This document shows positions 5,730-64,000 of a stretch of 64,000 nucleotides of DNA, one piece after another (the stretch's first letter is position 1; each line of letters begins with the position of its first letter). The translations under genes were made by a program, and so were the position numbers. Origin of the DNA: Terebella lapidaria (lineage: Eukaryota > Annelida > Polychaeta > Terebellida > Terebellidae); the NCBI GenBank assembly GCA_949152475.1, contig OX424561.1:18718481-18782480 (forward strand), in the 5' to 3' direction. The notes beneath the pieces were generated by a model, which made no database searches, had not been told where the DNA came from, and saw only the letters and a list, made by a program, of their open reading frames with translations.

Positions 5730-7437
5730 TGCATCCTATACGTCCACAATTGATTTCTAAGCTGTAAAGTAGGCAATAAGTGAGATATGCGCCATTTTGT
5801 GCTCTGCCCTTGAAAATGAGATCAAAGGTCATATTCAAGGTCTTGAGAACATTCAGTATATATCATTTCTAAAATGTCCACAATTGATTCCCAAGCTGCG
5901 CCATTTTGTGCTCTGCCCTTGAAAATGAGGTCAAAGGTCATATTCAAAGTCTTGAGAACATTCAGTATATATCATATCTAAAATGTCCACAATTGATTCC
6001 CAAGCTGTAAAGTAAATAATAAGCGAGATATTAGCCATTTTGTGCATCGACCTTGAAAATGAGGTCAAAGGTCATATTCAAGGTCACGAGAATATTCAGC
6101 ATATATCATTTCTTATATGTCCACAATTGATTCCCAAGCTGTCGAGTAAATAATAAGCGAGATAATAGCCATTTTGCTCTTTGACTTAGAAAATGAGGTC
6201 AAAGGCCAAATTCAAGGTCATCAGAATATTCGGCATATATCATTTCCTATATGTGCGCAATTGATTCCTAGCTGTAAAGTCGATATTGAGTGATATATTA
6301 GCCATTTCGTGCTTTGACCTTGGAATGAGGTCAGAGGTCAAATTCGAGATCACGAGAATATTCAGCATATATAATTTCCTATATGTCCACAACTGATTCC
6401 AAGTCTCTAATCTCAATATTAAGTGAGATTTCAGGAACAATGGGAAGGAAGGGAATTTATTTCACATGTGTACAACACAATAATCAAAAATAAGGTACAC
6501 ATATTGGACATCAAAGAAGAAGTAGTCTTATTGAATTGATAACCATAGAAAGAGAGAAAAAAGACACATGCTAAAAAAAAAATCAAGATGACGTACAAGA
6601 ACTGGAGTCAATACATTAAATATGAAAAAAAAACAATAATGCCACACTATTATGAATAATACACTTGAGTTATGTACAATATAAATACACGCCTTATGTA
6701 TGCTGTAATGCTACAGATACTTATGCTACAAGTTATGTTCAATTGCAATTAATGTTACACTTACACTTACAGATATGTACATTATAAATACATGCCTTAT
6801 GTACCTATGCTAAAGATAAGTTCGAGCAAATAACACAAGCAGACAAAAAATCCTAAGGTGTTACTATTTGACCAATAAATATTCCTTCAAATGTTGAGCT
6901 CTGACTTATATTACATGGGAGGCCATGCCATATCTTTGTACAATAATTGTTAAGCAAAAGTTTACCATGCTTTGAATGATAACAATGTGACCCATTATAA
7001 AGCATAGGAGAATTTAGCATGAGAAAGTCCCATTTGGGCCCAGTAGAAAAAATCAAAATGGCTGCCACACGCAGACCTGCGATTCAAGAGTAACGAAACT
7101 TATACATATTATAACGATAAATGAGGGGAACATTTTGAAACTAAAATCTCAAAATTGATTAGACAGTTTTTGAGAAAATAATGTTTAGAGTTGAAAAACA
7201 TGCAAAAGCAGCCATTTTCGTCATAAAAATGGCCGCCAAAACTGCATAAACGATTCAATAATAAAAAAAAAAACGTCTGGGGGTTTTGACCCAACACATA
7301 TTCACACAAATTTATGGACAAATTCATCAACCCGAGAAAAAGATAAAAAATGTTAACAGTAGATGCGGACGACGCCGACGACGACGGATGAAAAACCACG
7401 ACAATAGCAGCTAAAAACGTGACCCCCCCCCCCCCCA
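5730..7437 (-). mobile_element. Reversed copy of the 134-bp-satellite element (HINE-like)
   Basis: Read on the minus strand this matches the family member at 41.05-45.8 kb. From the high-coordinate end it shows a GTCGTC-rich head (about 7,370-7,400), a head segment containing GCCCAAATGGGACTTT (about 7,030-7,050), then about five diverged 134-bp units down to about 5,760. Those units carry AGGTCAAAGGTCA and TTCAAGGTC. A run of 14 or more C bases lies at about 7,420-7,437. A LINE fragment interrupts it at 6,443-6,980. The true outer ends are not sharply defined. Probably an old non-autonomous element. Confidence 0.65.
6443..6980 (-). mobile_element. 5'-truncated LINE fragment with 7-bp target-site duplication
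   Basis: On the minus strand the open frame near 6,853-6,970 reads IWHGLPCNISQSSTFEG, the typical C-terminal end of a CR1/L2/Jockey-type LINE ORF2 (family pattern W-x-x-LP...S..F). A 3' untranslated part follows, with an AATAAA signal close to the left end. The 7-mer AACAATG flanks it at 6,436-6,442 and 6,981-6,987, and the satellite-element sequence resumes on each side, so this is a later insertion. It contains an internal direct repeat of roughly 100 bp around 6,670-6,810. Confidence 0.7.
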
Positions 7438-22000: not shown

Positions 22001-24867
22001 AAAAATACAACTGTTTTTATGATCACATGCTAAGAAACTAAAACAAAATAGAACACGAACATGATGTAAACCATCATCAATACAAAGAACTTGTCTGGAA
22101 AACAAGACATAGTATGGTGGTGTAATAGTCCGATCTGTATATCTTAAAGACCGTTGAAATGCACTGAACAGTATAAAATTGGTTTCAGTATACATATTTT
22201 TAAAGTTGGAACTCTTTAAAATAATCCAATTAAGCATTCGTTTTCGTCACAAAAACCTGAAAGTACATATCGAGACTGTCATAAATAAACAGGAATTTAT
22301 TTATGCACAATTCGATGACGGTTACTCAGATTATCGCAGGAAATCGTGCATGAACACACATGATAGAGAATGAGTGGCTATCCGACATTGTAGTTGCCAC
22401 AGTCTCTAGACAAAAAACAATGACGTCATGAGACTGTGTGTAGAATTCGCCCACTACGCGGGCCGTTTCGAGCACGAAATGGATGAGAGATTGATTGGCT
22501 CGTGTTTTAGACACATAATACCTAGTTTCGAACCACCGTAATTTCTATGAGAATTTTCATTCTGTAGACAAACCAAAGCTTCGGCATAACAGTAAATTTT
22601 GTCAATTCTGAAACTGGTTCTAGCTTTCCGAATATATATTTTGTACTATATCTTTATGTTTGATTTTTGATACATGTACAACTGACCCCAGTGACCGTAT
22701 AGAAGATGTGTCAGTACGTCTGTTTCCCGCCTCCACAAATCGAGTATTTTAAGAAAGTCTCCACTCATGGCGAAAAACATAACTCAACGAAAATATATGT
22801 CGATCTACTCGAAAAGTGTCTGTAAAATCGTACATTTTAAATTGCCTTGGTGGGTTACGCCAGGATCAATCCATTATCCGTGACTGTAGTTGTAATGGGC
22901 GAAAAGCTTACTTCTGTGGTATGGGTTCTTTAGTGAACAGTCTAGCATTGACTTTGTAAATACTCACATTGTCCTCCGATACACATGGTTAGACAAAACA
23001 AAATGAAGTGACGAGTTCTCGACAGTTTCTCTTGTGTTTTCAGTGCAAGTTGATTAGCCACTGCTGTGATTAGCCAGTCGAAGACGTGTATAAATGTATA
23101 TTGTGGAAGGTAAATGGTCAGTCTTAGAACGATCTTTGTGAATGAATGTCTCTGGGTGTTGTAGATATAACATATGTGGCAGTCTAATTGTCGGAGTTAG
23201 ATTGTACAGAATTCTACTCTCAACATTCACATTCACATAAGAGATATTGAGTAACTAGTATGCGCCATGCTTCTGTTGTGACAAATATGTTATACCACAA
23301 TCTCGCTCATTCAAGGGCATGCTCTCATCGAAATGCATTTTTTACGTTTTCACGCTACCAATCTTATTGTAGGAGAACCTATTGGCATGTTGTTGTGTTG
23401 TTCTTTTTGTGGTTTATTGCATTTTTTTCTCGAAATAGCAGCCATTTTCGACGAAAAAAAAGCACACGAATTTGGACTTTAGTGGAAATTTTCTCAAAAT
23501 CTGCTCAGGCATCTTTTTGCATCAGTTTTATGCTGGTGTACTTTTTCTTCAGATTTAGGCTTGTGTATTTATTCTTGTGTACTTTCTCGATGTGTGGGAA
23601 TGATGGCCTTGGCAGCAGCACGTTACTTACCATGGCATAATATATGACCTTGTCTATTGCTACTCTGTCACCATGTAATGTATTCTGGTCCACAAATCAT
23701 TGTGCATTTCAGAAAACATCACCTGGAGACTCACAATGTTGCGAAATTAACAGCTTCAGGAAGCCACTGGATTGAACCCTATGGTCGTAAATAACGCCCA
23801 CGCCTGCGACCACCAGATGATTAAAGGTATATACATATGGGGAATCATTTAATGGACCCGGGTTCAATGATAGGAAGACAAATCAGTATGTTACATAATA
23901 AAGCAGGTAATCTAAATCAGTTCTACTTTGGGACTAAATATCTGAAAATTGATATACAGTATGTACCTCATACCGCCATAGATCACCCATGGACAAACTT
24001 CAGTTCGAACACACAGGTCACTCAGGTCTAGTTAGAGATCACTCAAAACTGCAGCATATATGTCTTGCTATAAGCTCATAATATAAACTAAGCTTTATTT
24101 TCGAAACATGGTGGTTAAATTGTTTCTAATGGTCAATTTGCACATATTGATGTGCTCATAACTAGAGATTTCAGCATTATGGTTGTTTTCTATTACCTTT
24201 CAAGGTCACCGCAGGTCAAACTTAATGTCATCTTTGAAATTGCAATTTCACACCAAATATATCTTGGGGTCTATAATTAATATTTACTGATCAAAACTCT
24301 TTAATTAGTATTCAATTCTCGTGGCAGAAAATACACTACACTGCACTGCGGTTGAAGACAATTTTAGTTGGTTTCCCATCGTTGAACTCGTTAGCCAGCA
24401 GCTGGGTCCGGGATCGTACCTCGTCAATCGGTAGATAACATCCCTGCGTGAGACACACACATGTCACAAGGTGTCATGTCATAATCTAGTTTTTTCTTAA
24501 TCTGTCAAGTTTGTCATGTTCGCTTTTGTTTGTCACTGGAGATCCAGTGAAAGTGACGGACATCCAATGACTATATGTGTCACTCCCAGTACCTATTATA
24601 AATTCGTATTACTGTGCTTATGGAAATGAATTCATTTCATTTTAATATCGTATGCAATGATATATTTGTACCGTGAACACTCGTTTTCCGCCGTTTAAAG
24701 TGAATCCGTTGCGCGCATGCGCTAAACGTCTATTGTTGAAACCCAACATCTCCCCTTCCTTCAGTCTGAATTCCACCTGCAAATCTTTGAATCATTACCT
24801 GCAATCCTCATTTATATATATATGTCATGATAATTCTGGTATTCAGCATTAATAACGGTATTCAGAA
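22001..24867. other. Region without recognised gene; satellite-element head fragment at about 23,395-23,600
   Basis: The stretch about 23,395-23,600 matches the head of the 41-kb element (AGCAGCCATTTTCGACGAAA, TTGGACTTT, TTTTCTCAAAATCTG). No other feature was recognised. I searched the minus strand here for the missing C-terminal exons of the dioxygenase gene without success. Confidence 0.5.
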
Positions 24868-25510: not shown

Positions 25511-27118
25511 CTCCCGTAGGATTTTTGTGTCAAAATTGATATTTTTGCATTTCTTGGTTCACTTGGGTGCATAGTATTGGAAAATGGCGGGGTACAAATT
25601 TTCCGACCTCTGGACCCCCCTGTGGGGGACCTTTCCTGTCTGGGGGGTCCTGGAACTGATGATACTATCAGATCCACCAATATTTGACCGATTTTTGTGG
25701 TTTCAATGTCAAAATGGGGGTTTCTGATGACGATAAATCCACTGATGACATTTTCAAAGTGATCCGAAGTGAATATGATCAATTTCCAACGTACGCGTAA
25801 TGGTCGCGGTGGCCGAACGGGGGTCCAATAATCAAAATTCGTCAATTTAACAAATAATGTCATGTAGTATATTTTTTTCAGGGTTTTCAGGTATGAGAAA
25901 TTGAATGAAGCAATAATTTATGTCATCAGACCACTCATTTTAGAGTTACTGAGCTTCCAGATATATTAATCGAAGCAATTAAAAGTCTTCATTTTTTTAC
26001 GGAATTTGTATTTCTTCATTTTAGAAATGCATAATTATACATGATGATGCAAATGTAGATTAATAACGAAATATAAGAAGCAATAACAATATGATACACA
26101 ATTACTGGAATAAAATCACACTTCAGCTGAAATATGAATAAAGGACATTATTTTGAAATGATGGACAAAGATTGCATGATATCGGTTATATATCTGATAA
26201 CATGATTTCTCAAGTTTACACAACTGATCATATAAAGTAATACATCTGTATTGTCAATACTCGGTTAATACTACAATTCACATACTTGAAATAAAATCAA
26301 TGGAAGAAAAATCGCATCGACCAATTAAATCAAATTACAAACGAAAGTAAATCGCCAATAGAAGCACTTCAAGAAAACAAAAATAACAAGGTTTCCATAA
26401 CACCATTAAAATAGCACCAGTCAAAGAACAAAATGCCTCATCGACTAGAAAAAAACCAGAGAGCAGAGGATGGTGAACCAATCAACCAGGCCAAACGAAA
26501 CCTCAACGAAACTTCTCCACCATATTCCTTGAACAACAAGTACTTGGAGGAACCAATCATAAAGAAGAAGCCATTACGTTCTGAGGAATCCCTTTTAGGC
26601 GAACGTCATGTGAAATCCAAGGACTACACAAAAATTGGTTCCTTGCAAGCCATTTTACAGCTAAAACAACAGTCCCGGAGAAGGATCAGCAGATCATCTA
26701 ATATTGACCAGCACGAGATTACAAGAACAGGTCAACATATGATCGTAGATCACCAAGTTAAGCCAAGAGGTGAATGACCATCAACTGGAAACAGGTGATC
26801 ATGCGAATTTCCAATCAGACAGTAGAAACTCAGATCCCAGCATGTGAAGTTGACAAAGACAGACATGATGCCAATCTGGGTAGCACCAACTCACTGCTCC
26901 TGTCACAGTCCTCTTCACACCAAAGCCAGACGAACTCGAAGGTCATCACTCCTCTGTTCGGGAAGTCAACTACAGAGACTATGAAACGTTGTACACATTC
27001 CTGATGCTGACTCAGGGGATCTGCAATGTTGTTGTCAGACCAGAGAGGGAAACAATCATCACTCTGGATCTGGACAATGTACAAACGTGCCCTCCAGATT
27101 CAGCAGTCAGTTGGCAAT
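25511..27118. repeat. Left inner arm of the foldback element
   Basis: Inverted partner of 27,508-29,112. The terminal segment shares CTCCCGTAGGAT and a C/G-rich block with GGGGGGTCC words. Differences between arms are scattered single bases and small indels, which suggests an old but not ancient duplication. Confidence 0.8.
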
Positions 27119-27507: not shown

Positions 27508-29112
27508 GCCAACCGACTGCTGAATCTGGAGGGCACGGTTGCACATCGTCTAGATCTAGAGTGATGATTGTTTTCCTTTCTGGTCTGACAACAACATTGC
27601 AGATCCCCTGAGTCAGCATCAGGAATGTGTACAAAGTTTCATAGTCTGTGGTTGACTTCCTGAACAGAGTAGTGATGACCTCCGAGCTCGTCTGGCTTTG
27701 GTGTGAAAATGACTGTGACAGAAGCAGTGAGTTGGTGCTGCCCAGGTAGGCAATATGCCTGTCTTTGTCAGCTTGGCATGCTGGGATTCGACGTCTTAAC
27801 TTTCTGACTGGCAATTCGGATGATCACCCGTTTCCAGCTGATGTTCTTTCACCTCTTGGCTTGCTGTCACTTGTTGATCTATGACCATATGTTCACCTGT
27901 TGTTGTAATCTGGTGCTGGTACTCATCAAATGATCTGCTGATCCTTCTCCGGGACTGTTGTTTTAGCTGTAAAATGGCTTGCAAGGAACCAAGTTTTGTG
28001 TAGTTCTTGGACTTCACATGACGTTTGCCTGGTAGGAATTCCTCAAAAGGTATTGGCTTCTTGTTTATGATTGGTTCCTCCAAGTACTTGATGTCTAAGG
28101 AATATGGTGGAAAAGTTTCGTTGGAATAACGAGGGGCTGGTTGATTGGTTCACTATCCTCTGCTCTCTGTCTTTTCTGGTCGATGAAACATTTTGTTCTT
28201 TGACTGGTGCTATTTTAATGGTGTTATAGAAACCTTGTTATTTTTGTTGTCTGGATGTGCTACTGTTGGCGATTAAGTTTCCTTTGAATTGTGACTTGAC
28301 TAGTGGATGAGAGTTTTCTTTGATTGATTTTATTTCAAGTATGTGCATTGTAATATCAACAGGGTATTGACAATATGGATATATTATTTTATATGGTCAG
28401 TTGGGTATACTTGAGAAATCATGTTATCAAATATATAACCGACATCATACAATCTTTGTGCATCATTTCAAAATAATGTCCTTTATTCATGTGTCAGCTC
28501 AAGTGTAATTTTATTTCAGTAATTGTGTATCATATTGTTATTGCTTCATATATTCCGTTATTAATTCACATTTTCATCATCATGTATAATTGTGTATGTC
28601 TGAAATGAAGAAATACAAAATTCGTAAAAAACGAAGACTTTTAATCTCATCGATTTATATATCTGGAAGCTCAATAACTCTAAAATGAGTGGTCTGATGA
28701 TATAAATAACTGCTTCATTCAATTTTTCATACCTGAAAACCCTGAAAAAAATATACTACATGACATTATTTGTTAAATTGACGAATTTTCATTATTGGAC
28801 CCCCGTTCGGCCACCGCGACCATTACGCGTACGTTGAAAATTGATCATATTCACTTCTGCTCACTTCTAAAATGTCATTAGTGGATTTATCGTCATCAAA
28901 AACCCCCATTTTGACATCAAAACCACAAAAATCGGTCAAATATTGGTGGATCTGATAGTATCATCAGTTCCAGGACCCCCCAGACAGGAAAGGTCCCCCA
29001 CAGGGGGGTCCAGAGGTCGGAAAATTTGTACCCCGCCATTTTCCCATACTATGGACCCAAATGAACCACGAAATGCAAAAACATCAATTTTGACACAAAA
29101 ATCCTACGGGAG
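27508..29112. repeat. Right inner arm of the foldback element
   Basis: Inverted partner of 25,511-27,118. On the minus strand it holds the same protein fragments in slightly different form (KSKNYTKLGSLQAILQL; TDYETLYTFLMLTQGICNVV). The arm therefore contains an inverted second copy of the front of the gene, but not the part found in the centre. Confidence 0.8.
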
Positions 29113-30142: not shown

Positions 30143-31581
30143 CTCAGGAATCCATAGAGGACCTTGCAGAAGTACAGATATAGTCACACCGATAATCTGA
30201 AATAGTAAACATTTACAGTGTCTTATAAATTACCATATAGTTCAGTTTCGAAAACATCGTTGGATTCGAATAAAATGGATAGTATTTCGTATCGTTTCAG
30301 GCCACATTAATTATAAGTACAGTATAATGTTATGAAATCTCGCACCTCATAAACTCACCTCGCCTGAAATATTGTCGACCATGAAGTGAGGCCCTCGGTA
30401 TCTCATGTCCACACGGTCCCTATGACAGATATCATAGTTATTTTAACTTTCAGCAGCGCCCAGTACTGCTATTATATTTATTCATACTGTGTTCACAACA
30501 TTATATTCCTGAAACAAGACAGTTCGCCTGTTTTTTCGATCTATTTGGTATCTTGGTAATTCTTTCGCCAACTTATCCATAATGCATGTGTTTTGCGGTG
30601 TGATCAACTGGAACATCACTTATGAAGTCAAGTTACTAATAAATTTTGTTCAAATATTCAAAATTCGTTTCGATGAACAGCACCAAAATGGATTTGTCGA
30701 GCACTAAGAGTACTGACGGTTCTGAGTGTAGTCACGTGCTGAATGTACACACGAGTGTATTCATGAGTGTATTCATATGTTTTGTGTACGTGCCGAGCAT
30801 ACTCACGTGCTGAATGTACTTGCATACTGAATGTACTCGTGTGCTGAATTTACTCACGTGCTGAACGATTTTATGTGTTTTGTGTTGGTGCCGAGCGTAC
30901 TCACGTGCTGAGTGTACTCATGTACTGAGTGTACTCATGTACTGAGCATACCCACATGCTGGGTGTATTCACGTGTTTTGTGTATGTGCTGAGCATACTC
31001 ACGTGCTATGTGTACATTGAGCTTAAAGTACTCACGGTGCTGACTGTATTCACGTGTTATGTGTACATGCCGAGCGTACTCATGTATGTGCTGAGTGTAC
31101 TCACTGGCTGCGCATACACACGTGCTGAGTGTACTCACGTGCTAAATGTGCTCACGTGCTCAGTTTATTCACGTTCTGAGCGTACTCACCTGTCGAGCGT
31201 ACTCACGCGGCATATTGAACGTTGTAGAAGGAGACAGGGACTGTCGCCAGGACCTGGAAATCCTCGGGGTGGAGCTGCTGCATGCGTTTCGCCTCGTACC
31301 ACGCATCTACAAGTATACTCTCTCCTCCCACCACACAGTCGTCAAACCTACACCGAAAACAATGTCAATGTGCACTAAATCAGCCACAGACAGCCCACAA
31401 CAGCAGGGTGATACGAGCTGTCCAGTGGGATATGTGCAGCAAACATCCCCGCATTTAATTGTCTGGCTCAAGAAGCGCACACCTTTCACACAATAGGAAC
31501 TGATATCCCGGGCAGTCGGACTGGTACGGCATGTCCATGTGCGCCGCCAGAGGGTAGGTCGTCTTTGTACGTCGTGAAATT
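30143..31581 (-). CDS. Dioxygenase exons 7-10: iron-binding core
   Basis: Exon 31,581-31,483 reads PLAAHMDMPYQSDCPGYQFL. His and Asp of HMD are the first two iron ligands (H-x-D), and CPGYQFL matches the family PPGVQLLHC. Exon 31,347-31,207 reads GGESILVDAWYEAKRM then PEDFQVLATVPVSFYNV, matching GG-x-x-x-VDGF...P-x-x-F-x-x-L. Exon 30,419-30,359 reads DRVDMRYRGPHFMVD, and exon 30,196-30,143 reads IIGVTISVLLQGPLW. Introns are 135, 787 and 162 bp. The exon at 31,347-31,207 ends in a GTGAGT donor, which is also the first unit of a minisatellite. Confidence 0.85.
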
Positions 31582-36512: not shown

Positions 36513-37005
36513 TATGTTTTTCATAGTTAAAAAAAAAATTATTAACAATACATGCATCTATCCAGCAGCAGTATATAATACGTAGAACGTGAACACTCGC
36601 AGCCACGCTATTTTTATTGAATGAGCCCCGGTCGAGCCTATTGCATCCGGGAATCTCGACTACTCCCGCTCAGCCCCTCACCACCCCCCCCCCCCCTCAA
36701 CGTCAGAGGCATTTTCATTTTATTTGGTAGCTGTTCGGTGTCTCCTGTGTTTAAATTTAGCATATACTCATTCTATTGACCTTGTTTTGGAAAAACATTC
36801 AAATCTTTCTTTCGGAGGGGGGGGGGGGGGGTTGTCTGCTATAAGTACGACCAATGCAGCTGTGAAATGCCTAAGCATCATACTTGTCTGCTAATGCACT
36901 TACAGTCAACTAGACGGCAATTTCCTCCCAGGACCTAAGTGTGGCCGAGAAATCAGACATCAAACTGACATCATACTCTCGAAGCTTGGGGTTCCTTGAA
37001 ATGGC
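36513..37005. other. Between repeats; C-run and G-run
   Basis: Homopolymer runs of C (about 36,685-36,698) and G (about 36,818-36,831) lie about 130 bp apart. Otherwise nothing was recognised. Confidence 0.5.
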
Positions 37006-37524
37006 AAGATATTCTCAAAGCTTCGGGCTCCACGAAATGTTACTCCCATTATTGTGAACTGCCAGGACGAGGTATGGTCGAACGCACCGTCTGCAAGCAC
37101 ACTCATGAGAACGTGTTTATTATTCAGTGTATGGATTATCAGTATTATCGTTAATCTGCTTTTGTAAGTCAATTTACACTAAGGGCAATGTTGTCGAACT
37201 AAATGACTTGGAACAAACAAGTTCTCATTATCATATGTAAAGCAATGTCGAAAGAATTTCAATTATTAGGAACCTAGAATATGAGCACTCAAGGTCGCAT
37301 TCAACGCCAAGGTGATGTATCAGTATATACCGGTATGTGTAATACATGTACATACATCAGACTTCCTAAGCTCGTGATACAAAGCTAATCTGTACTTCCA
37401 AGTCCCCAATGACCATGTCTTCATGTAGGCATTGTATTCAGTTTGACCAATCGAGGACACATCAGGTCAATTTAAATTTCAAACATGTTTCCTAATGACC
37501 CAAGCTCTAACATCAAGCATGTGT

Positions 37525-37572
37525 TATATCAGACTCCTGAGATAGCATGTGCTATCTCAGGAGTCTGATATA
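37525..37572. other. Perfect hairpin with 23-bp arms and 2-base loop
   Basis: Arms 37,525-37,547 and 37,550-37,572 are exact complements around TG. The hairpin sits exactly where the insertion in unit 1 begins, since unit 2 lacks it. It is not followed by a T run, so it is not read as a terminator. Confidence 0.85.
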
Positions 37573-37861
37573 TATGTATATTAGTTTTGTATTCCTGTTT
37601 TCAAATATCAGTATTGTTAATTATTTTTTTTAAGTTAGTCATTGTTTGTATTTTCTACTTTTTTCATTTACATCCTGTTCTTGCCCTTGTCATTTTTGTT
37701 TCTTTTATACATATGGGACCGCAATGGAATTAAGTCTTTTGACTTTTTGCGCTATCCCAGGTAGACATTCATGTGTTATATACTATATGTACTTTTATCA
37801 TATTTTTATATTGTACATGTGTTTACTGAATAAACTCAAATCAAATCAAATCAAATCAAAT
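37573..37861 (+). mobile_element. LINE 3' tail ending in (CAAAT)n
   Basis: Unit 2 of the duplication joins GTGTT directly to CATAGGCCG (near 40,545), whereas unit 1 has this extra segment. It contains GGACCGCAATGGAATTAAG and a GAATAAACTC signal, and ends in four CAAAT units. This is typical of a 5'-truncated LINE or its SINE partner. The coding part is gone. Confidence 0.7.
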
Positions 37862-40800
37862 CATAGGCCGATTTACTTATTGTCTTTTCTGAAGCGGGTG
37901 GGGGGGGGGGGGGTGGACGTACCTGGTGTTTGAGATGAAGTTCATTGTCACTAATGATACATCATATATCAGGTTTTAAATACAAAGAACAGATAAGATG
38001 TGTTATCCATTAATACTACTCGTCAATTTGGAACATGCCATTTATCCCTTCTGGCACCTTTTTCATCTTCACTGATTATGGAAAATCATGCAGCATGCAA
38101 ACTGATCATTTGCAAATCATGCAAAGTTTTTTTTTACACATATTATATCAAATAAATTGCACAATGTTATCCTCACACAAAATAAAGAAGAATTTGAAAT
38201 AAATTTTGAGAAAAAAATCATATGCTGGCCTCAGTAGGCCTACGCTATTTTTGCCCAACAAAAGACCGCCAAAACAGCAACAACAAAAAACGAATAAAGA
38301 AAAAGACACAGCTAATGATATCCCGGACTATCTTCTGAAGAGATATATTTTTATCGACTGGCGGTGCTTTTTAATTATCGGCATGAATGAGTCGCTAGAC
38401 TTCAATATATGCCTATCCACAATTAACTAGTGTCATGATCAATGCACCCAGGCCAGTAGTGGGATAATTACACTGTGATATTAATGTACATGTGCGTTTT
38501 ACGGGTACGAAATGAATGATTTCATTGAATTGCCTCATCGGGCAATATCCTCAGGTACATGTCATTGCCAGTCTGGGATGCCGTCATCTCAAGTCCCATT
38601 TCACGGCTCTAGCCATCTTGATTTCCAGCACATCATTCACAAGAACTTGTAATTATTCCCTTTGACCTTCATGGTCCATTTTGCCGTTTCCTGCTGGCAA
38701 TCCCAGAAACGTTAAGGGAAAGTATCGTGGACCTGCCGGAGGTTTAACGGAAAGACCCGTGCCAGGGATTCGGAAGGGAGGAACAAGACGTCAAAGACCG
38801 TTGCTTCCTTTGACTATTAAGTGCAGATGAAAACATATCCATAGCCTTTCTTTGATATTCTTGAGGAATTCTTAATTTTCTCATGCTTAAAACATGGCTG
38901 ATCCCAAGCATGTTCGCTTGGTCAGACGAAGATATCCATAATTGGAATCCGAGTGATACCAAATATAGCCTAGGCCATATAGGTCTACAAGTTTCCCCAC
39001 AAAATTCAATGGTTGGTCTATCACCGGCTTTATCAATCAAGTATTATTGTCGTATATTTTGCTTGTTGTTTTCGGTTTACGAACATTTTGAATCAGTTAG
39101 GCTATAGACAAATGCATTCACTAGTTATTTTTGGGACGGAGTAATCGGGGAAATATTATTTGTATTTGGTACGTGCAGATCAATAGCTCGCAGGCCTACT
39201 AACGGATTACTAATTTGTAAGTACAAGCTACTTGTAAAGTACAAACTGCAAACTGAAATGGATAGAAGTATCATCATCATCATACCGGTGTGATATAAAC
39301 ATGTAATGTTAAAAATGCGGTGAGCGTTATGACGACCTGCTTGCGTCGGGTATCCCAAAGTAACCCAGACAAGCATCACACCTACAGATCACACCACTGA
39401 TGCGGCACATTTTGGCGACCTTGAAATTCAAAGCTAATCTCAAGGTCACAATGTGTAAATTGGCCGCTGCAGACAAAATGCTTGTAGACATATATCTTAT
39501 GTTTCTGTGGACATATACATAGAAAGTTGTATGGCACAGCTAATAGTGAACTTGACGTCAGATGATTTTGAATGTTCTCAATGTCACGTCTGATACGAAA
39601 TGTGTAAATTGACCTTTGGGTATGAAACACTTGCACATGTATACAGCTTAGGATTGTATTATAAACGTATGGAGTCATATATATATAACATATCTTTTGT
39701 TAACTTCGAACTTGACTGTAGACGAACTGAATATTGAATATCCCTGTACAGAGAAAATGCTTGTATACTCGAATCTTATCACTCATTTACCCAGATTTTT
39801 GTTGATATGTATGTATTGCTAAATGATATCGTATCATAGATTGGCACATTTCTATCCAGTGTCAGACTTTTATCGCGGAAACTAAAAACAAGAAAATGCA
39901 GCAAACTGCGGAAGACGACATTAGAGCTTGAGCACATCATCAGCACCACGACAGCTGAATGTAGGCCTATCTTACACAACGTAACCCCCCCCCCCCCCTC
40001 CCCCACCTCCAAAAAAAAAAAGAAGCCAAGATATTCTCAAAGCTTCGGGCTCCACGAAATGTTACTCCCATTATTGTGAAATCCCAGGACGAGGTATGGT
40101 CGAACGCACCGTCTGCAAGCACACTCATGAGAACGTGTTTATTATTCAGTGTATGGATTATCAGTATTATCGTGAATCTGCTTTTGTAAGTCAATTTACA
40201 CTAAGGGCAATGTTGTCGAACTAAATGACTTGGAACAAACAAGTTCTCATTTCATATGTAAAGCAATGTCGAAAGAATTTCAATTATTAGGAACCTAGAA
40301 TATGAGCACTCAAGGTCGCATTCAACGCCAAGGTGATGTATCAGTATATATGTGTAATACATGTACATACATCAGACTTCCTAAGCTCGTGATACAAAGC
40401 TAATCTGTACTTCCAAGTCTCCAATGACCATGTCTTCATGTAGGCATTGTATTCAGTTTGACCAATCGAGGACACATCAGGTCAATTTAAATTTCAAACA
40501 TGTTTCCTAATGACCCAAGCTCTAACATCAAGCATGTGTTTTCCATAGGCCGATTTACTTATTGTCTTTTCTGAAGCGGGTGGGGGGGGGGGGGGGGTGG
40601 ACGTACCTGGTGTTTGAGATGAAGTTCATTGTCACTAATGATACATCATATATCAGGTTTTAAATGCAAAGAACAGATAAGATGTGTCATCCATTAATAC
40701 TACTCGTCAATTTGGAACATGCCATTTATCCCTTCTGGCACCTTTTTCATCTTCACTGATTATGGAAAATCATGCAGCATGCAAACTGATCATTTGCAAA

Positions 40801-41689
40801 TCATGCAAAGTTTTTTTTTACACATATTATATCAAATAAATTGCACAATGTTATCCTCACACAAAATAAAGAAGAATTTGAAACAAATTTTGAGAAAAAA
40901 ATCATATGCTGGCCTCAGTAGGCCTACGCTATTTTTGCCCAACAAATGACCGCCAAAACAGCAACAACAAAAAACGAATAAGACACAGCTAATGATATCC
41001 CGCACTATCATCTGAAGAGATATATTTTTTATCGACTGGCGGCCCTTTTTAGGTTACCGGACCATTGGTCCGATAACCTATTGGCATGGCGTTGCGTCCG
41101 TCGTCCGTCGTCCGTCATCCGTCGTCGTCGTCCGTCAACAATTTTATCTTTAAAGTTTAAGATCGAATTTTTCTGAAATTTTGCACAAAAATGCCTAAAA
41201 ATATTTCGAGAGGGAGGTATTTTTTAGTTTTTAGGTTACCGGACCTATGGTCCGATAACCTATTGGCATGGCGTTGCGTCCGTCGTCCGTCGTCCGTCCG
41301 TCCGTCGTCCGTTCACATTTTTATCTTTAAAGTATATGATCGAATCTTTCTGAAATTTTGCACAAAAATACCTAAAAATATTTCAAGGAAAGGTTTTTTT
41401 TTGTTTTTCGATTTTCGCATTTTTTTCAAAATGGCGGCCGTTTTCAACGAAAACTGCCTGATTTTGGACTTTGGCGGCCATTTTCTCAAAAACTGTTCAG
41501 TAACTTTTTTTCTTTTTGATACACAACACTCCTCATATGTAAACCTGTGATGTGTATAAGTTTCGTTGCGCTTGAATCGCTCGAAGTGGGCCATTTTGGG
41601 CCAAACTTGGCCCAAATGGGACTTTCCCATGTTAAATTTTCCTATGCTTTATAATCATGATAATGGGACACATTATGCCTTATATCTCG

Positions 41690-44600
41690 CTTAATATTGA
41701 GATTAGAGACTAGGAATCAATTGTGGACATATAGGAAATGATATATGCTGAATATTCTCGTGACCTTGAGTTTGACCTCTGACCTCAGTTTCAAGGTCAA
41801 AGAACAAAATGGCTAATATCTCGCTTATTATCGACTTTACAGCTTAGAAATCAATTGTGGACATATAAGAAATGATATATACCGAATATTCTGATGACCT
41901 TGAATTTGACCTTTGACCTCATTTTCAAGGTCACAGGACAAAATGGCTAATATCTCACTTCTTATCGACTTTACAGCTTAGGAATCAATTATGAACATAT
42001 AGGAAATGATATATGCAGATTATTGTCATGACCTTGAATTTGACCTTCGACCTCATTTTCAAGGTCACGGGACAAAATGGCTAATATCTCACTTATTATC
42101 GATTTTACAGCTTAGTGATCAATTGTGGACATGTAGGAAATGATATATGCTGAATATTCACGTGACCTTGAATTTGACCTTTGACCTCATTTTCAAAGTC
42201 ACAGGACAAAATGGCTAATATCTCGCTTATTATCGACTTTACAGCTTAGGAATCAAATATGGACATACAGGAAAGGATATACGCTGAATATTCTGATGAC
42301 CTCAAATTTGACCTTTGACCTTATTTTCAAGGTCATAGCACAAAATTGCTAATATCTCGCTTATTATCGACTTTACGGCTTAGGAGTCAATTGTGAACAT
42401 ATAGGAAATGATATATGCTGAATATTCTCGTGACCTTGAATTTGACCTTTGACCTCATTTCCAAGGTCACAGGACAAAATTGCTAATATCTCGCTTATTA
42501 TCGACTTTATGGCTTAGGAATCAATTGTAAACATATAGGAAATGATATATGCTGAATATTCTCGTGACCTTGAATTTGACCTTTGACCTCATTTTCAATG
42601 TCACAGGACAAAATGGCCAATATCTTGCTCATTAGCGACTTTGCAGCTTAGGAATCAATTGTGAACATATAGGAAATGATATATGCTGAATATTCTAGTG
42701 ACCTTGAATTTGACCCTTGCCCTAAATTTCAAGGTTAGTCATTTTATTTTCAAGGTCAGAATACAAAATGGCTTATATCTCGCTTATTATCAAATTTACA
42801 GCTTAGGGGTCCATAGTGAACATATAGGAAATGATGTATGCTGAATATTTTGGTGATCTAGAATTTGACCTTTGATCTCATTTTCAAGGTCAGAGAACAA
42901 AATGGCTAATATGTCGCTTATTATCATCTTTACATCTGCCCCTGATGACGCCAGTGTGTCTTTGGATAAACTATTTGGTCGGGCTTTGTTTCTATTGCAA
43001 AATGTTGTATTTTACCTTTCTTATTGGCATCATCAAAATTTGATTGTATTGGTGGTAATAGATTGATACTTACATTTGTACCACTGAGTCGGTGTCACTA
43101 CTGGCGGACGTTAAATCTGTCCCCGAGGATACCATCAACTCAGTAGCCTTCGGGCTTGTGATTGGGTACTTTTGTACTTGTCATGTATCTATTCCATGGG
43201 GTTAGATTCGGATTTCTAAATTATTTTCATAGGTTGTTGGGCAGTTGTATACTAATTCCATCTGGTGTACAGTAGAAACAACTACATTTAACACATTGTC
43301 TGCCCCTGAAAACGCCAGTGTGTCTTTGGATAAACTATTTGGTCGGGCTTTGTTTGTTTCTATTGCAAAATGTAGTATTTTACGTTTCTTATTGGCATCA
43401 TCAAAATCTGATTGTATTGGTGGTAATAGATTGATACTTACATTTACAGCATAGGAATCAATTGCGAATATAGAGGAATGATATATACTGAATATTTTCA
43501 TAACCTTGAACTTGAACTTTGACCTCATTTTCAAGGTCACATCACAGAATGGCTAATGTCTCACTTATTATCGACTTTACAGCTTAGGAATTTATTGTGG
43601 ACATACTAGAAGTGATATATTTGTTGAAAATTCATGACCTTGAATTTATCAGTGACTTTATTTTCAAGGTCACTGGACAAAAGGCTAATATCTAAAATGT
43701 ATATTGTCCGGTAACCTTTCTTAGCCCTTGGGCTAATTTTTTATTTTCGCATTTTTTTCAAAATGGCGGCCGTTTTCGTCGAAAAATGGCCAATTTTGGA
43801 CTTTGGCGGTCGTTTTCTCAAAATCTGTTCAGTAACTTTTTTTTTATTGATGCATAACACTCCTCATATGTACCCCTGTGACATGTATACATTTCGTTGC
43901 CCTGGAATCGCTCGAAGTGGGCCATTTTGGGCCCAAACTCGGCCCAAATGAGACTTTCCCATGTTAAATTCTCCTATGCTTTATAATGGGACACATTAAA
44001 GCCTAATAGCTCACTTAATATTGAGATTAGAGACTAGGAATCAATTGTGGACATATAGGAAATGATATATGCTGAATATTGTCGTGACTTTGAATTTGAC
44101 CTCTGACCTTGGTTTCTAGGTCAGAGCAGCCGTTTTCGTCGAAAAATGGCCAATTTTGGACTTTGACGGTCGTTTTCTCAAAATCTGTTCAGTAACTTTT
44201 TTTTCTTATTGATGAAAAACACTCCTCGTATGTACCCCTGTGACATGTATAAATTTTGTTGCCCTTGAATCGCTTGAAGTGGGCCATTTTGGGCCCAAAC
44301 TCGGCCCAAATGTGACTTTCCCATGTTAAATTTTCCTATGCTTTATAATGGGACACATTAAGCCTAATATCTCACTTAATATTGAAATTAGAGACTAGGA
44401 ATGAATTGTGGACATATAGGAAATGATATATGCTGAATATTCTCGTGACCTTGAATTTGACCTTTGACCTCATTTTCAAGGTCACATGACAAAATGGCTA
44501 ATATCTCGCTTATTATCAACTTTACAGTTTAGGAATCAATTGTGAACATATAGGAAATGATATATGCTGAATATTTTCGTGACCTTGAATTTGACCTTTG

Positions 44601-45720
44601 ACCTCATTTCCAAGGTCACAGGACAAAATTGCTAATATCTCGCTTATTATCGACTTCACAGCTTAGGAATCAATTGTGAACATATAGGAAATGATATATG
44701 CTGAATATTCTCATGATCTTGAATTTGACCTTTGACCTCATTTTCAAGGTCACAGGACAAAATGGCCAATATCTTGCTTATTAGCGACTTTACAGCTTAG
44801 GAATCAATTGTGAATATATAGGAAATGATATATGCTGAAAATTCTCATGACCTTGATTTTGACCTCTGACCTCATTTTCAAGGTCACATGACAAAATGAC
44901 CAATATCTCGCTTATTATCGACTTTACAGCTTAGGAAACAATTGTGGACATATAGGAAATGATATACGCCGAATATTCTGATGACCTTGAATTTGACCTT
45001 TGACCTAATTTTCAAGGTCACAGGACAAAATGGCTAATATCTCGATTATTATCGACTTTACAGCTTAGGAATCAATTGTGAACATATAGGAAATGATATA
45101 TGCTGAATATTCTCGTGACCTTGAATTTGACCTTTGACCTCATCTTGAAGGTCACAGGACAACATGGCTAATATCTCGCTTATTATCGACTTTACAGCTT
45201 AGGAATCAATTGTGAACATATAGGAAATGATATATGCTGAATATTCTCGTGACCTTGAATTTGACCTTTGACCTCATTTCCAAGGTCACAGGATAAAATG
45301 GCTAATATCTCGCTTATTATGGACTTTACAGCTTAGGAATCAATTGTGAACATATGGGAAATGATATATGCTGAATATTCTAGTGACCTTGAATTTGACT
45401 TTTGACCTCATTTTCAAGGTCAACAGGACAAAATGGCTAATATCTTGCTTATTATCGACTTTACAGCTTAGGAATCAATTGTGAACATATAGGAAATGAT
45501 ATATTCTGAATATTTTAATGATATTGAATTTGACCTTTGACCTAAATTTCAAGGTCAGTCATTTTATTTTCAAAGTCAGATTACAAAATGGCTTATATCT
45601 CGCTTATTATCAAATTTACAGCTTAGGGGTCCATAGTGAACATATAGGAAATGATGTATGCTGAATAGTTTGGTGATCTAGAATTTAACCTTTGATCCCA
45701 TTTTCAAGGTTAGAGATATG
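41690..45720 (+). repeat. 134-bp satellite array with nuclear-receptor-like half-sites
   Basis: The unit runs CTAATATCTCGCTTATTATC, GACTTTACAGCTTAGGAATC, AATTGTGAACATATAGGAAA, TGATATATGCTGAATATTCT, CGTGACCTTGAATTTGACCT, TTGACCTCATTTTCAAGGTC, ACAGGACAAAATGG. More than twenty units are present in blocks at about 41,690-42,935, 43,445-43,700, 43,990-44,110 and 44,350-45,720. Each unit carries TGACCTTGA, TGACCTTTGACCTC and TTCAAGGTCA, that is, AGGTCA half-sites including a direct repeat with one-base spacing. Confidence 0.9.
42935..43445 (-). repeat. R1 element inserted in the satellite array, in two overlapping pieces
   Basis: Both pieces match R1 on the minus strand (CCCGACCAAATAG, ACACTGGCGT, CAACTGCCCAACAACCT). 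The right parts of the two pieces are nearly the same, so R1 is partly duplicated in place, and the array resumes on both sides. Confidence 0.75.
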
Positions 45721-47411
45721 GCGATTTCAGTGGTCACCTTGAGTTTGACCTTCAACTTTCTCGGCTTAACTCTGTATATTTCTCCGGTAACCTTTCTAGC
45801 CCATTGGGCTAATTTTAATTATCGGCATGAATGAGTCGCTAGACTTCAATATATGCCTATCCACAATTAACTGGTGTCATGATCAATGCACCCAGGCCAG
45901 TAGTGGGATAATTACACTGTGATATTAATGTACCTGTGCGTTTTACGGGTACGAAATGAATGATTTCATTGAATTGCCTCATCGGGCAATATCCTCATTT
46001 ACATGTCATTGCCAGTCTGGGATGCCGTCATCTCAAGTCCCATTTCACGGCTCTAGCCATCTTGATTTCCAGCACATCATTCACAAGAACTTGTAATTAT
46101 TCCCTTTGACCTTCATGGTCCATTTTGCCGTTTCCTGCTGGCAATCCCAGAAACGTTAAGGGAAAGTATCGTGGACCTGCCGGAGGTTTAACGGAAAGAC
46201 CCAGGGATGCCAGGGATTCGGAAGGGAACAAGACGTCAAAGACCGTTGCTTCCTTTGACTATCAAGTGCAGGTGAAAACATATCCATAGCCTTTCTTTGA
46301 TATTCTTGAGGAATTCTTAATTTTCTCATGCTTAAAACATGGCTGATCCCAAGCATGTTCGTTTGGTCAGACGAAGATATCCATAATTGGAATCCGAGTG
46401 ATACCAAATATAGCCTAGGCCATATAGGTCTACAAGTTTCCCCACAAAATTCAATGGTTGATCTATCACCGGCTTTATCAATCAAGTATTATTATCATAT
46501 ATTTTGCTTGTTGTTTTCGGTTTACGAACATTTTGAATCAGTTAGGCTATAGACAAATGCATTCACAAGCCTACTTACGGATTACTAATTTGTAAGTACA
46601 AGCTACTTGTAAAGTACAAACTGCAAACTTGAATGGATAAGAGTATCATCATCATCAGCATCATACCGGTGTGGTATAAACATGTAATGTTAGAATCGCG
46701 GTGAGCGTTATGACGACGAGCTTGCGTCGGGTATCCCAAACGAATCCAGACAAGCATCACGCCTACTGATCACACCATTAATGCGGCACATTTCGGCGAC
46801 CTTGAAATTCAAAGCTAATCTCAAGGTCACAATGTGTAAATTGGCCCCTGCAGATAAAATGCTTGTAGACATATATCTTATGTTACTGTGAAAATATACA
46901 TAGAAAGTTGTATGGCAGAGCTAATAGTGAACTTGACGTCAGATGATTTGAATGTTCTCAATGTCACGTCTGATACGAAATGTGTAAATTGACCTTTGGG
47001 TATGAAACACTTGCACATGTATACAGCTTAGGATTGTATTATAAACATATGGAGTCATATATATATATATAACACATCTTTTGTTAACTTCGAACTTGAC
47101 TGTAGACGAACTGAATATTGAATATCCCTGTACAGAGAAAATGCTTGTATACTCGAATCTTATAACTCATTTACCCAGATTTTTGTTGATATTTATGTAT
47201 TGCTAAATGATATCGTATCATAGATTGGCACATTTCCATCGAGTGTTATCGCGGAAACAATCGCGGAAACAAAAAACAAGAAAATGCAGCAAACTGCGGA
47301 AGACGACATTAGAGCTTGAGCACATCATCAGCACCACGACAGCTGAATGTAGGCCTATCTTACACAACGATACCCCCCCCCTTCCCCCACCTCCAAAGAA
47401 AAAAAGAAGCC

Positions 47412-48009
47412 ATAATTTTATCCCCTACATATTTCCAATTCATTTCCGTATACCAGGATGAAAAACATGGCCTACTTCATTCATATTACTAATAAGTAAA
47501 CATTTATTCTAAAATCGATCAATGGAACAGATAAGCTTGAACCTCATTAGAATATCCTCAAAACATTGGAAATTATGAGGAATATCTGCATCTGATATCA
47601 TCAGATATAGCCTAACACATGCCTTTACTGGGCAAATTAAAATACCAGTTAAGACTTCGCAATCCAACACAGAACAGAACACCAGCTTAATTGTCATTTA
47701 TAGAATAAGTCAAATTACGGTAAATGTAGCCGTGGCATCGCAGACGAATCGTTGTGTTTACTTCATAACGCCAAAAATGTCCACACGCAGATGCCCACTG
47801 TCATGGATGCACGAATTGCTGAACAGAAATTGTGTTCCAAAATACGCGTGATTGTGGTAAAATTTGCTTTGCATTCTGGGAACGTCATTTTCCATCGGCT
47901 CCGCCATTTTGGGACGTTTTTAGATAATTTGAACATTTTACGTAATTTTCTCAAACCTAGCACATCGATTCATGCCTCCTCAAGCGGAGTGTTGAGGACG
48001 CGACTCTGA
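47412..48009. other. Region without recognised gene
   Basis: No supported feature. Open frames on both strands at 47,752-48,009 overlap each other and show no motif. Confidence 0.4.
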
Positions 48010-60847: not shown

Positions 60848-62437
60848 TTGTTTGAATGGCGTAACGAACTTGAAACAGATCCCGACAGAGACTTTCTAAT
60901 AACCGGTATCACACATGGCTTCAGGGTCGCCGACACCAGTAACCTGAAACCCGTCGAGTGCCCGAACTACAAGTCCGCCACTAACAGTCACAACAGGACT
61001 ATCGTCGAGAAACAACTCCGAGATGAGATAGCTGCTGGCCACTACGTCATCCCCAAAGACAAGCCGACTATAATCAGTGCCATTGGTGCAATCCCCAAGC
61101 CTGGCAGTAGCGATCTCCGCATCATACATGACTGCAGTCGTCCGACAGGCGCCAGCGTCAACTCCTACGCGAACCCGGACAAGTTCTCCTTCCAGAGTGT
61201 GGACACGGCGGTGTCACTGCTCTCGCCAGGGGCGTGGATGTGCAAGGTTGATATCAAGTCCGCATACAGGCATGTCGGGCTCCACCCGGACCAGTTCCCC
61301 GCCACGGGTATCAAGTACCACTTCTCCGGTGACCGCCAGCCCACCTATCTCCACGACACACGACTGATGTTTGGAGCGTCGCAGTCTGTGGGGATCTTCC
61401 ACAGGATCTCCCAAGCTGTGGTCCGCTGTATGGAGCGTCGCGGTTTCACCAGAACGCTGTGCTACCTGGACGATTTCTTGTGTATTGAGGACACACAAGA
61501 ACGGTGTCAAGACGCAATGGACGCCCTGACAAGTATCCTAAGAAATCTCGGCTTCACGATCAACAGCAAAAAGAGTGTCACCCCAACGCAACGCATCACA
61601 TTCTTAGGTATCATTCTAGACACTAAGACTAATATGATGTTCATTCCGGAAGACAAGTTACATGAAATTCGCGCGTGTTGCTCTTATTGGATTGACCAAC
61701 GCAAGATCACCAAAAAACAGCTGCAATCGATCGTCGGAAAAATCAGCTGGGGCGCCAAATGTGTAAAAGCCATGCGACCGATCCTACGGTCACTGATCGA
61801 CCTGCAAGCAACGCTCAAGCATCCGTCACACCGGATTCGCCTCCCGGCCTTTGTGAAAAAGGACCTTGCTCTGTTCCATGATTGGTGCATAAAATTCAAT
61901 GGCGTGGTCTATTTCCCGGGAAACCGCAGGCCCCAGCCCGACACCGTCGTGTACACAGACGCCTCCTTGGACGCAGGCGCCGCATACTGCAGTAGTGATT
62001 TCCTGTACTGTGCATGGGAAAGAGATTTCCCAGGAATTGTCTCTCAGTCTATATTCATAAAAGAATTGTGTTCAGTGTTATTGGCTTTCCATCGGTGGTG
62101 CTATGCGTGGAAAGACAAATGTGTTCTCATTAAAACAGACAATCAGGGGGCCGAATGGGCCATACGTAAAGGAACTTCTCGCAATTTTGTCGCTAACTCA
62201 GTTGTAAGGGAAATATTGTGGATTGCCGCTTTGTTCAACATACGAGTTGTTGTGTCATATATCAATACTCATGATAATGTCATTGCCGATGCTATTTCCA
62301 GAATGCATGACAATTACTTTCTGGCACAGGCCATCAATTGTTTCAAAAAAGAGGGTGTTCATATTTATCATAAGCGTTATAACATGTTAAATCACATGTC
62401 CGTAGCTAGCTATAAATTTGTGTTCAGCCTTGCGTGA
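60848..62437 (+). CDS. DIRS reverse transcriptase and RNase H (fossil)
   Basis: RT motifs in order: IGAIPKPGSSDLRIIHDCSR, VDIKSAYRHV, LMFGASQSVGIFHRI, and the catalytic YLDDFL near 61,463. RNase H follows with VYTDASLDAGAAY near 61,950, IKTDNQGAEWAI and NVIADAISRM. The DIRS-group RT and RNase H lie in one block with no protease or integrase. A part of it (61,830-62,100) is repeated, inverted, at the window end. Confidence 0.85.
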   Translation: MFEWRNELETDPDRDFLITGITHGFRVADTSNLKPVECPNYKSATNSHNRTIVEKQLRDEIAAGHYVIPKDKPTIISAIGAIPKPGSSDLRIIHDCSRPTGASVNSYANPDKFSFQSVDTAVSLLSPGAWMCKVDIKSAYRHVGLHPDQFPATGIKYHFSGDRQPTYLHDTRLMFGASQSVGIFHRISQAVVRCMERRGFTRTLCYLDDFLCIEDTQERCQDAMDALTSILRNLGFTINSKKSVTPTQRITFLGIILDTKTNMMFIPEDKLHEIRACCSYWIDQRKITKKQLQSIVGKISWGAKCVKAMRPILRSLIDLQATLKHPSHRIRLPAFVKKDLALFHDWCIKFNGVVYFPGNRRPQPDTVVYTDASLDAGAAYCSSDFLYCAWERDFPGIVSQSIFIKELCSVLLAFHRWCYAWKDKCVLIKTDNQGAEWAIRKGTSRNFVANSVVREILWIAALFNIRVVVSYINTHDNVIADAISRMHDNYFLAQAINCFKKEGVHIYHKRYNMLNHMSVASYKFVFSLA

Positions 62438-63594: not shown

Positions 63595-63728
63595 TGTGTA
63601 TTTAATCTTGTTTAAATGAGTTTAAAATGTTGTGCTCCACGCATTACTCCGCGTCGATATTTCTTATTGCAGGTGTAACTCTTGTACAGGTTTTATTGTA
63701 CTCTGCCCTTGGTAACGGTTATTACTCA
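63595..63728 (+). repeat. Right direct repeat of the DIRS element
   Basis: Same 134 bp as 59,539-59,672; no difference was seen by eye. Confidence 0.9.
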
Positions 63729-64000
63729 GCACCACCGATGGAAAGCCAATAACACTGAACACAATTCTTTTATGAATATAGACTGAGAGACAATTCCTGG
63801 GAAATCTCTTTCCCATGCACAGTACAGGAAATCACTACTGCAGTATGCGGCGCCTGCGTCCAAGGAGGCGTCTGTGTACACGACGGTGTCGGGCTGGGGC
63901 CTGCGGTTTCCCGGGAAATAGACCACGCCATTGAATTTTATGCACCAATCATGGAACAGAGCAAGGTCCTTTTTCACAAAGGCCGGGAGGCGAATCCGGT
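63729..64000 (-). repeat. Inverted copy of part of the DIRS RT/RNase H region
   Basis: 63,730-64,000 is the exact reverse complement, by eye, of 61,830-62,100 and runs off the window. It joins the right direct repeat with one base between. Either a second DIRS copy in opposite orientation starts here, or this is a rearranged or misassembled end. Confidence 0.85.

What the first reader, a model, noticed from the sequence alone, without database searches (positions are those of the whole stretch)
30712..31206. Minisatellite that is a chain of splice donors, starting at the exon edge
The intron of the dioxygenase gene begins on the coding strand with a 17-bp tandem array whose first unit is the real donor (GTGAGTACGCTCGAC...). 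About ten units keep GTGAGT, so there are about ten equal-looking donors in a row. Each can in principle pair with U1, so donor choice, intron definition and copy-number change are linked. I recall a class of amphioxus intronic minisatellites that begin at 5' splice sites; this could be a member or a parallel case in another animal.
Basis: partly seen in the sequence, partly recalled or inferred. Interest (0 to 1): 0.8.

Follow-up and report, generated by a model that had tools for sequence, protein, structure and literature searches.

The report
Intron-start repeat copying a splice site
In an enzyme gene of what is probably a segmented worm, about thirty copies of the first 17 letters of an intron run on from the exact edge of the exon, giving nine look-alike splice sites; a few other genes of the same genome carry similar arrays at exon edges, a pattern known from lancelets.

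Summary
The array is real and starts at the exon edge: about 30 units of GTGAGTACNCTCAGCAC from 31206 (first intron base) to 30704, minus strand; nine keep GTGAGT. Reading frame and homology fix the exon edge. The donors are not all equal: unit 2 (CAG|GTGAGT) pairs with U1 far better than the in-frame donor (-13.6 against -7.2 kcal/mol), yet its use would bring an in-frame TGA. The array's only genome match is itself and six paralogs sharing the intron position lack it, so it most likely grew in place from the donor. The donor hexamer is not better kept than the rest of the unit, so inner donors look like unselected decoys. The animal is probably an annelid. Of 5 readable AG|GTRAGT arrays elsewhere in this genome, 3 start at exon ends (MORC2-like, MOV10-like, one unnamed) with exon bases in the unit, like lancelet "mirages"; 1 is ambiguous, 1 is not. 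The window array holds no exon bases: a boundary-abutting variant. Motif hits exceed reversed controls in total, but a few long arrays dominate, so no genome-wide excess is shown. Splicing is untested.

The parts
31207..31347 (-). Exon of a TauD / gamma-butyrobetaine dioxygenase-like gene, ending GCC GC at the donor
   Evidence: translation; Pfam TauD E 2.6e-13 together with neighbouring exons; PDB homologs align across the junction
30420..31206 (-). Phase-2 intron, 787 bp; donor G at 31206, acceptor ..TCATAG ending at 30420
   Evidence: sequence; frame and homology; same position in 6 paralog loci
30704..31206 (-). Minisatellite, about 30 units, consensus GTGAGTACACTCAGCAC
31190..31206 (-). 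Unit 1 = in-frame donor (CGC|GTGAGT), U1 duplex -7.2 kcal/mol; of 29 units compared, the closest to the intron start of paralog L029 (13/17)
31173..31189 (-). Unit 2 = strongest decoy donor (CAG|GTGAGT), U1 duplex -13.6 kcal/mol; its use would add 17 nt with in-frame TGA
   Evidence: reading of the sequence (GCG TGA)
30359..30419 (-). Next exon, DRVDMRYRGPHFMVDNISGE
   Evidence: sequence
30143..30196 (-). Following exon, IIGVTISVLLQGPLWIPE
   Evidence: sequence
24672..24785 (-). Exon near the C-terminal end of the TauD domain (distal histidine region, named from memory)
   Evidence: Pfam TauD E 2.8e-6, profile 228-261 of 267, for the open frame 24642-24791

Best explanation
A minisatellite born in place from a real 5' splice site. 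The first 17 or so bases of an old, conserved intron were tandemly duplicated and the array then grew into the intron by slippage or unequal exchange; it could not grow into the exon, because coding sequence and the functional donor are held by selection. The exon-edge unit stays the working donor; inner units are unselected decoys that decay or lose GTGA by short deletions. Shown: position, periodicity, exact anchoring, no second match found in the genome, absence in six paralog loci sharing the intron, no preferential upkeep of the donor hexamer, in-frame stop if inner donors are used. Inferred: the direction of growth, the mutational mechanism, and that splicing still uses unit 1 although unit 2 pairs better with U1.
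For: The array alignment begins at intron base +1, taking in at most one, uninformative, exon base. Only one match in the whole genome, itself. Intron position and phase shared by L029 and L030-L034, none of which has the 17-bp array; L029's intron is 116 bp with head GTGAGTACCCTTGAACGC. Unit 1 is the closest of 29 units to that head (13 of 17), unit 2 next by alignment score (12). Mean information of unit columns 1-6 is 0.94 bits against 1.16 for columns 7-17, gaps counted as a state (worked out); in the 22 full-length units, 3 of 6 hexamer columns and 4 of 11 others are at least 90% constant: no sign of selection to keep inner donors. Coding constraint: window against L029, 3 nonsynonymous against 21 synonymous differences in 42 codons. 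Other arrays at exon ends in the genome: MORC2-like exon + 37-bp units, MOV10-like exon + 26-bp units, an unnamed exon + 38-bp units, with 10, 15 and 7 of 9 exon bases shared with the next unit.
Against: Synonymous sites between window and L029 are saturated (pS 0.79), so the likeness of unit 1 to the paralog's intron head beyond +6 (7 of 11, binomial P 0.0076, uncorrected) may be chance or constraint. At least two further paralog loci were matched but not fetched. Donor-motif hits are not interpretable as an excess. The window unit carries no exon sequence, unlike the other anchored arrays. No transcript was seen.
Confidence: 0.62

Rival explanations
1. Inner donors are really used: the array acts as a ladder of alternative 5' splice sites, and unit 2 is a poison donor that lowers output through nonsense-mediated decay, so copy number or strength tunes the gene, as the minisatellite of human IFI6 supplies extra donors.
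For: Unit 2 (31189) has by far the best U1 match in the scanned stretch (-13.6 against -7.2). In human IFI6, downstream repeat units serve as splice donors (passage in PMC4526556). Any inner donor puts TGA in frame in unit 1.
Against: Inner donor hexamers are not better conserved than the rest of the unit. Amphioxus arrays with repeated splice signals are reported not to disturb splicing (passages in PMC3087553, and PMC3902484).
Confidence: 0.18
2. An ordinary intronic minisatellite that lies next to the donor by chance; the GTGAGT content is incidental.
For: Tandem arrays are common in this genome (45 TRF rows in the window; 160 rows in 264 kb). Hits of donor-motif arrays exceed the reversed control only modestly outside one satellite. 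6 of 6 readable GTRAGT arrays without AG show no exon at the edge.
Against: The first unit of the array is itself the donor, in register, with the array ending at the exon. Three other arrays with full donor motifs (a fourth is ambiguous) also start at exon ends and contain exon bases.
Confidence: 0.12
3. Intron sliding: an array formed inside the intron and the splice site moved to its edge because array units are good donors.
For: The last exon bases differ among paralogs (GCC GC, GCC AT, GCC AA), and the window donor is one of several equal sites.
Against: Intron position and phase are the same in six paralog loci without the array.
Confidence: 0.05
4. The repeated donors are kept as a platform for U1 snRNP or other RNA-binding factors, or the RNA folds to hide inner donors.
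For: Nine GTGAGT within 503 nt; each unit can form UGAG/CUCA pairs (85.7% of cells pair).
Against: Folding is no better than shuffles (z -0.98; z 0.47 around the donor); pairing and covariation are within the range of shuffled columns (99 and 72 of 500 shuffles reach the observed values); hexamer not preferentially conserved.
Confidence: 0.03

Closest known systems
Amphioxus 'mirages' (minisatellite-like tandem duplications of exon-intron boundaries; BflGb6, BflGb9, Adh3; also reported for PGBD5)
   Same: Tandem arrays at splice sites, many units with splice signals; [quoted passage not shown] PMC3902484).
   Different: Probable annelid, not lancelet; the window unit is 17 bp and purely intronic, starting at +1, while mirages as described span the boundary. 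L046, L048 and L049 in this genome do span it.
[quoted passage not shown]
   Same: A minisatellite whose units are donors beside the authentic one (title in a reference list and a passage of PMC4526556; reference also in PMC2572611).
   Different: There downstream units are used as donors and yield several mRNAs; here use is untested and would bring a stop. The 1995 paper itself was not held.
Intron gain by tandem duplication of AG/GT sites
   Same: Same raw event, duplication of a stretch carrying a splice site (passages in PMC3087553, and PMC2812944; PMC4974935 seen in search listings only).
   Different: No new intron here; the intron is shared by paralogs.

Membership tests
Mirages (as described in amphioxus) | Tandem repeat located at an exon-intron boundary | tested here: met
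   Array starts at intron base +1
Mirages (as described in amphioxus) | Repeat unit spans the boundary (contains exon bases) | tested here: not met
   Window: 2 of the last 6 exon bases match the next unit; L046, L048, L050 match 6 of 6, L049 5 of 6
Mirages (as described in amphioxus) | Found in cephalochordates | tested here: not met
   Mitochondrial code 5 and gene order, read by eye and compared from memory, fit an annelid
Mirages (as described in amphioxus) | Normal splicing not disturbed | not testable with these tools
   No transcript data
Mirages (as described in amphioxus) | Length instability between alleles | not testable with these tools
   One assembly only
IFI6-type minisatellite of splice donors | Units carry donor consensus next to the authentic donor | tested here: met
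   Nine GTGAGT, first one in frame
IFI6-type minisatellite of splice donors | Inner units used as donors in mRNA | not testable with these tools
   No RNA; inner use would give TGA in frame
TauD / gamma-butyrobetaine dioxygenase-like gene (host gene) | TauD domain homology across the intron | tested here: met

The most novel reading that the evidence does not exclude
5' splice sites are recurrent birthplaces of minisatellites in this probable annelid genome, as in lancelets: a transcription- or donor-linked process duplicates the donor region in many genes, sometimes with exon bases and sometimes without, and leaves ladders of decoy donors that the spliceosome must ignore.
Probability: 0.35. 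Interest if true: 0.72.

Novelty: new variant of a known kind. Interest (0 to 1): 0.52.

Why it matters
If donor-born arrays recur in an annelid as well as in lancelets, the class is not a lancelet oddity, and one can ask directly why 5' splice sites seed tandem repeats and how the spliceosome picks the exon-edge donor when a stronger copy lies 17 nt inside the intron. The unit-2 donor makes the window gene a clean natural test of donor choice.

Tried and rejected
Dispersed repeat family: not supported, the array's only match in the genome is itself (the tool warns that DNA search skips very common words). RNA structure: whole array z -0.98, donor region z 0.47, unit hairpin within the range of shuffles. 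A second unit in the paralog intron L029: not supported (best 9 of 17, shuffles P 0.60). Similarity of the rest of the intron with L029: score 25 against shuffle mean 24.45 (that script took the intron as 780 bp, 7 bases short of the acceptor). Hexamer test on 35 arrays (9-100 bp, at least 3 copies; window array included) in 264 kb: GTGAGT in 3, reversed TGAGTG in 3. Two-copy donor duplications in the same 264 kb: 0 of 10 AGGTRAGT sites and 3 of 252 GTRAGT sites, against 0 of 25 and 4 of 420 for the reversed motifs.

Edges of other arrays. GTRAGT without AG: nine places fetched (L036-L044). L039 is no tandem array by TRF at the matched place. L036 and L041 run past the fetched end. The six readable ones (L037, L038, L040, L042, L043, L044) showed no exon by eye; no database search was run on them. 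L045 shows no coding exon on the array strand; a frame that I read on the other strand had no Pfam hit. L046's exon had no Pfam hit and a MORC2 hit at E 2.7e-4. L048's exon had the Pfam hit given, and only weak, apparently unrelated PDB rows. L050's 30-bp unit is a multiple of three and stays open through the fetched units, so it may be a coding repeat: I call it ambiguous. L049 and L050 exons had no Pfam or PDB hit; ACOX3 for L049 is a recalled resemblance only. The Fisher test printed (4 of 5 against 0 of 6, P 0.015) counts L050 as anchored and should not be leaned on. On C1-C3 the listed places hold 4 arrays of the reversed motif against at least 8 of AGGTRAGT; control edges were not read. 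Papers opened without use: PMC4039745 (passages; a C. elegans minisatellite near alternative exons) and PMC3862624 (passages).

Full report
Where it is. The window is part of contig C7 of a 761.6-Mb, 438-contig genome. A 15,973-base contig holds COX1; it reads with code 5, with AGA at serine places, and its long frames lie on one strand in an order that I read by eye as cox1-cox2-cox3-nad6-cob-atp6-(repeat region)-nad5-nad4. That order is, from memory, the annelid one; I name no species.

The gene. On the minus strand lies a gene of the TauD / gamma-butyrobetaine dioxygenase type: joined exons give Pfam TauD E 2.6e-13, the best solved relatives are TmpA and gamma-butyrobetaine dioxygenase and the alignment runs across the intron in question, and a frame at 24672-24785 matches the end of the TauD profile. 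The exon 31207-31347 ends GCC GC; the intron runs from 31206 to 30420 (787 bp); the next exon begins G GAC CGT. With that acceptor the 31206 donor keeps the frame. Any inner donor reads GCG TGA and stops.

The array. Wrap-around alignment finds about 30 units from 31206 to 30704. Lag-17 autocorrelation is 0.516 against a shuffle maximum of 0.354 over lags 10-39, and GTGAGT occurs nine times against a shuffle mean of 0.36. A few units lack GTGA and are 13-14 bp long. Mean column information, worked out with gaps counted as a state, is 0.94 bits for the donor hexamer and 1.16 for the rest; among the 22 full-length units, 3 of 6 hexamer columns and 4 of 11 others are at least 90% constant. Nothing suggests that inner donors are kept by selection.

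Donor strength. With U1 RNA (ViennaRNA duplex, best pairing) the in-frame donor gives -7.2 kcal/mol; seven inner GTGAGT give -7.1 to -7.7; unit 2, preceded by CAG, gives -13.6, the best of the GT sites in the scanned stretch 30420-31500. How the exon-edge donor wins, if it does, is the open question.

Origin. The array's only match in the genome is itself. A protein search gave 17 exon matches, three of them in the window gene; seven other loci were fetched (L029-L035) and at least two weaker ones on C7 were not. Six of the seven share the intron position and phase: L029 has a 116-bp intron beginning GTGAGTACCCTTGAACGC and no array; L030-L034, neighbours on C7 at 36.3-36.5 Mb, begin GTCAGTC followed within a few bases by a CAA repeat, 5 of 5, probably one inherited event. 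L035 shows no intron there in my alignment. Of 29 units compared, unit 1 is the closest to L029's intron head (13 of 17), unit 2 next by alignment score. But synonymous sites between the two genes are saturated (21 differences over 26.7 sites), so this likeness beyond the donor hexamer is only suggestive. Absence from six paralog loci favours birth of the array in this gene.

Is it a class? Five pattern scans give hits, forward + reverse, against the reversed motif: GTGAGT 469 + 1464 against 536 + 962 (the rows shown are mostly GTGA microsatellite), GTGAGTH 19 + 664 against 80 + 143 (one 20-bp satellite on C2 fills most listed rows), GTAAGTB 51 + 90 against 68 + 25, AGGTRAGT 80 + 277 against 58 + 186, AGGTAAGT 54 + 133 against 47 + 127. 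Totals exceed the control each time, but hits overlap within a few long arrays, so I claim no excess. The edges are more telling. Of nine places with GTRAGT but no AG before it, one is no array, two ran past the fetched end, and six readable edges showed no exon by eye. Of six AG|GTRAGT arrays fetched, five had a readable edge: L046 starts at the end of a MORC2-like exon (PDB search E 2.7e-4); L048 at the end of a MOV10-like exon (Pfam MOV-10_beta-barrel E 9.2e-12, above its cut-off); L049 at the end of a 60-codon open exon with no database hit; L050 at the end of an open exon, but its 30-bp unit stays open and may be coding; L045 shows no exon on that strand. In L046, L048 and L049 the unit contains 10, 15 and 7 of 9 exon bases. 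These fit the description of amphioxus mirages. The window array shares only 2 of the last 6 exon bases and begins at +1.

Known relatives. Passages of PMC3087553 describe mirages in amphioxus globin genes and Adh3, which are said not to interfere with regular splicing; passages of PMC3902484 describe repeats that abut a 5' splice site in lancelet PGBD5. A passage and reference of PMC4526556 report that repeat units in human IFI6 serve as splice donors. Literature searches of the held library brought no annelid case in the titles and passages that I saw; one search lists four further papers with the word mirages (PMC7710358, PMC13078855, PMC3188502, PMC6537219) that I did not open, on other topics by their titles. 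In the passages read, an earthworm metallothionein paper (PMC12783039) describes first-intron minisatellites and does not speak of donor anchoring.

Verdict. A local, donor-born minisatellite; a boundary-abutting relative of mirages in a probable annelid, with three boundary-spanning ones, and perhaps a fourth, seen elsewhere in the same genome. The arrangement is shown; splicing behaviour, growth mechanism and genome-wide frequency are not.

Noticed in passing
25511-27115 and 27508-29112: Large inverted repeat, 1.6 kb arms, 89.5% identical, inside the same gene's span.
   Followed up: no
41675-42934, 44364-45710, 5734-6442: 134-bp tandem arrays in two neighbouring blocks, with an inverted relative near the window start.
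   Followed up: no
37005-40028 against 40027-41051 and 45813-47412: Several direct duplications of 0.5-0.9 kb at 92-98% identity.
   Followed up: no
61830-62102 and 63728-64000: A 273-bp stretch with a 100% identical inverted copy reaching the window end.
   Followed up: no
L030-L034, intron start: CAA microsatellite a few bases behind the donor GTCAGTC in five of five neighbouring paralogs, with different lengths.
   Followed up: partly
L036 (C2:49.780-49.788 Mb): Long 20-bp satellite GTGAGTCTCTATAGCAAGGA, hits spread over about 15 kb from C2:49.773 Mb, perhaps interrupted; all GTGAGT in L036 on one strand.
   Followed up: partly
L003/L004 (C417:44633-46450): COX1-like frame with TGA codons on a 61-kb contig separate from the mitochondrial contig; nuclear copy or foreign mitochondrial DNA.
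   Followed up: no
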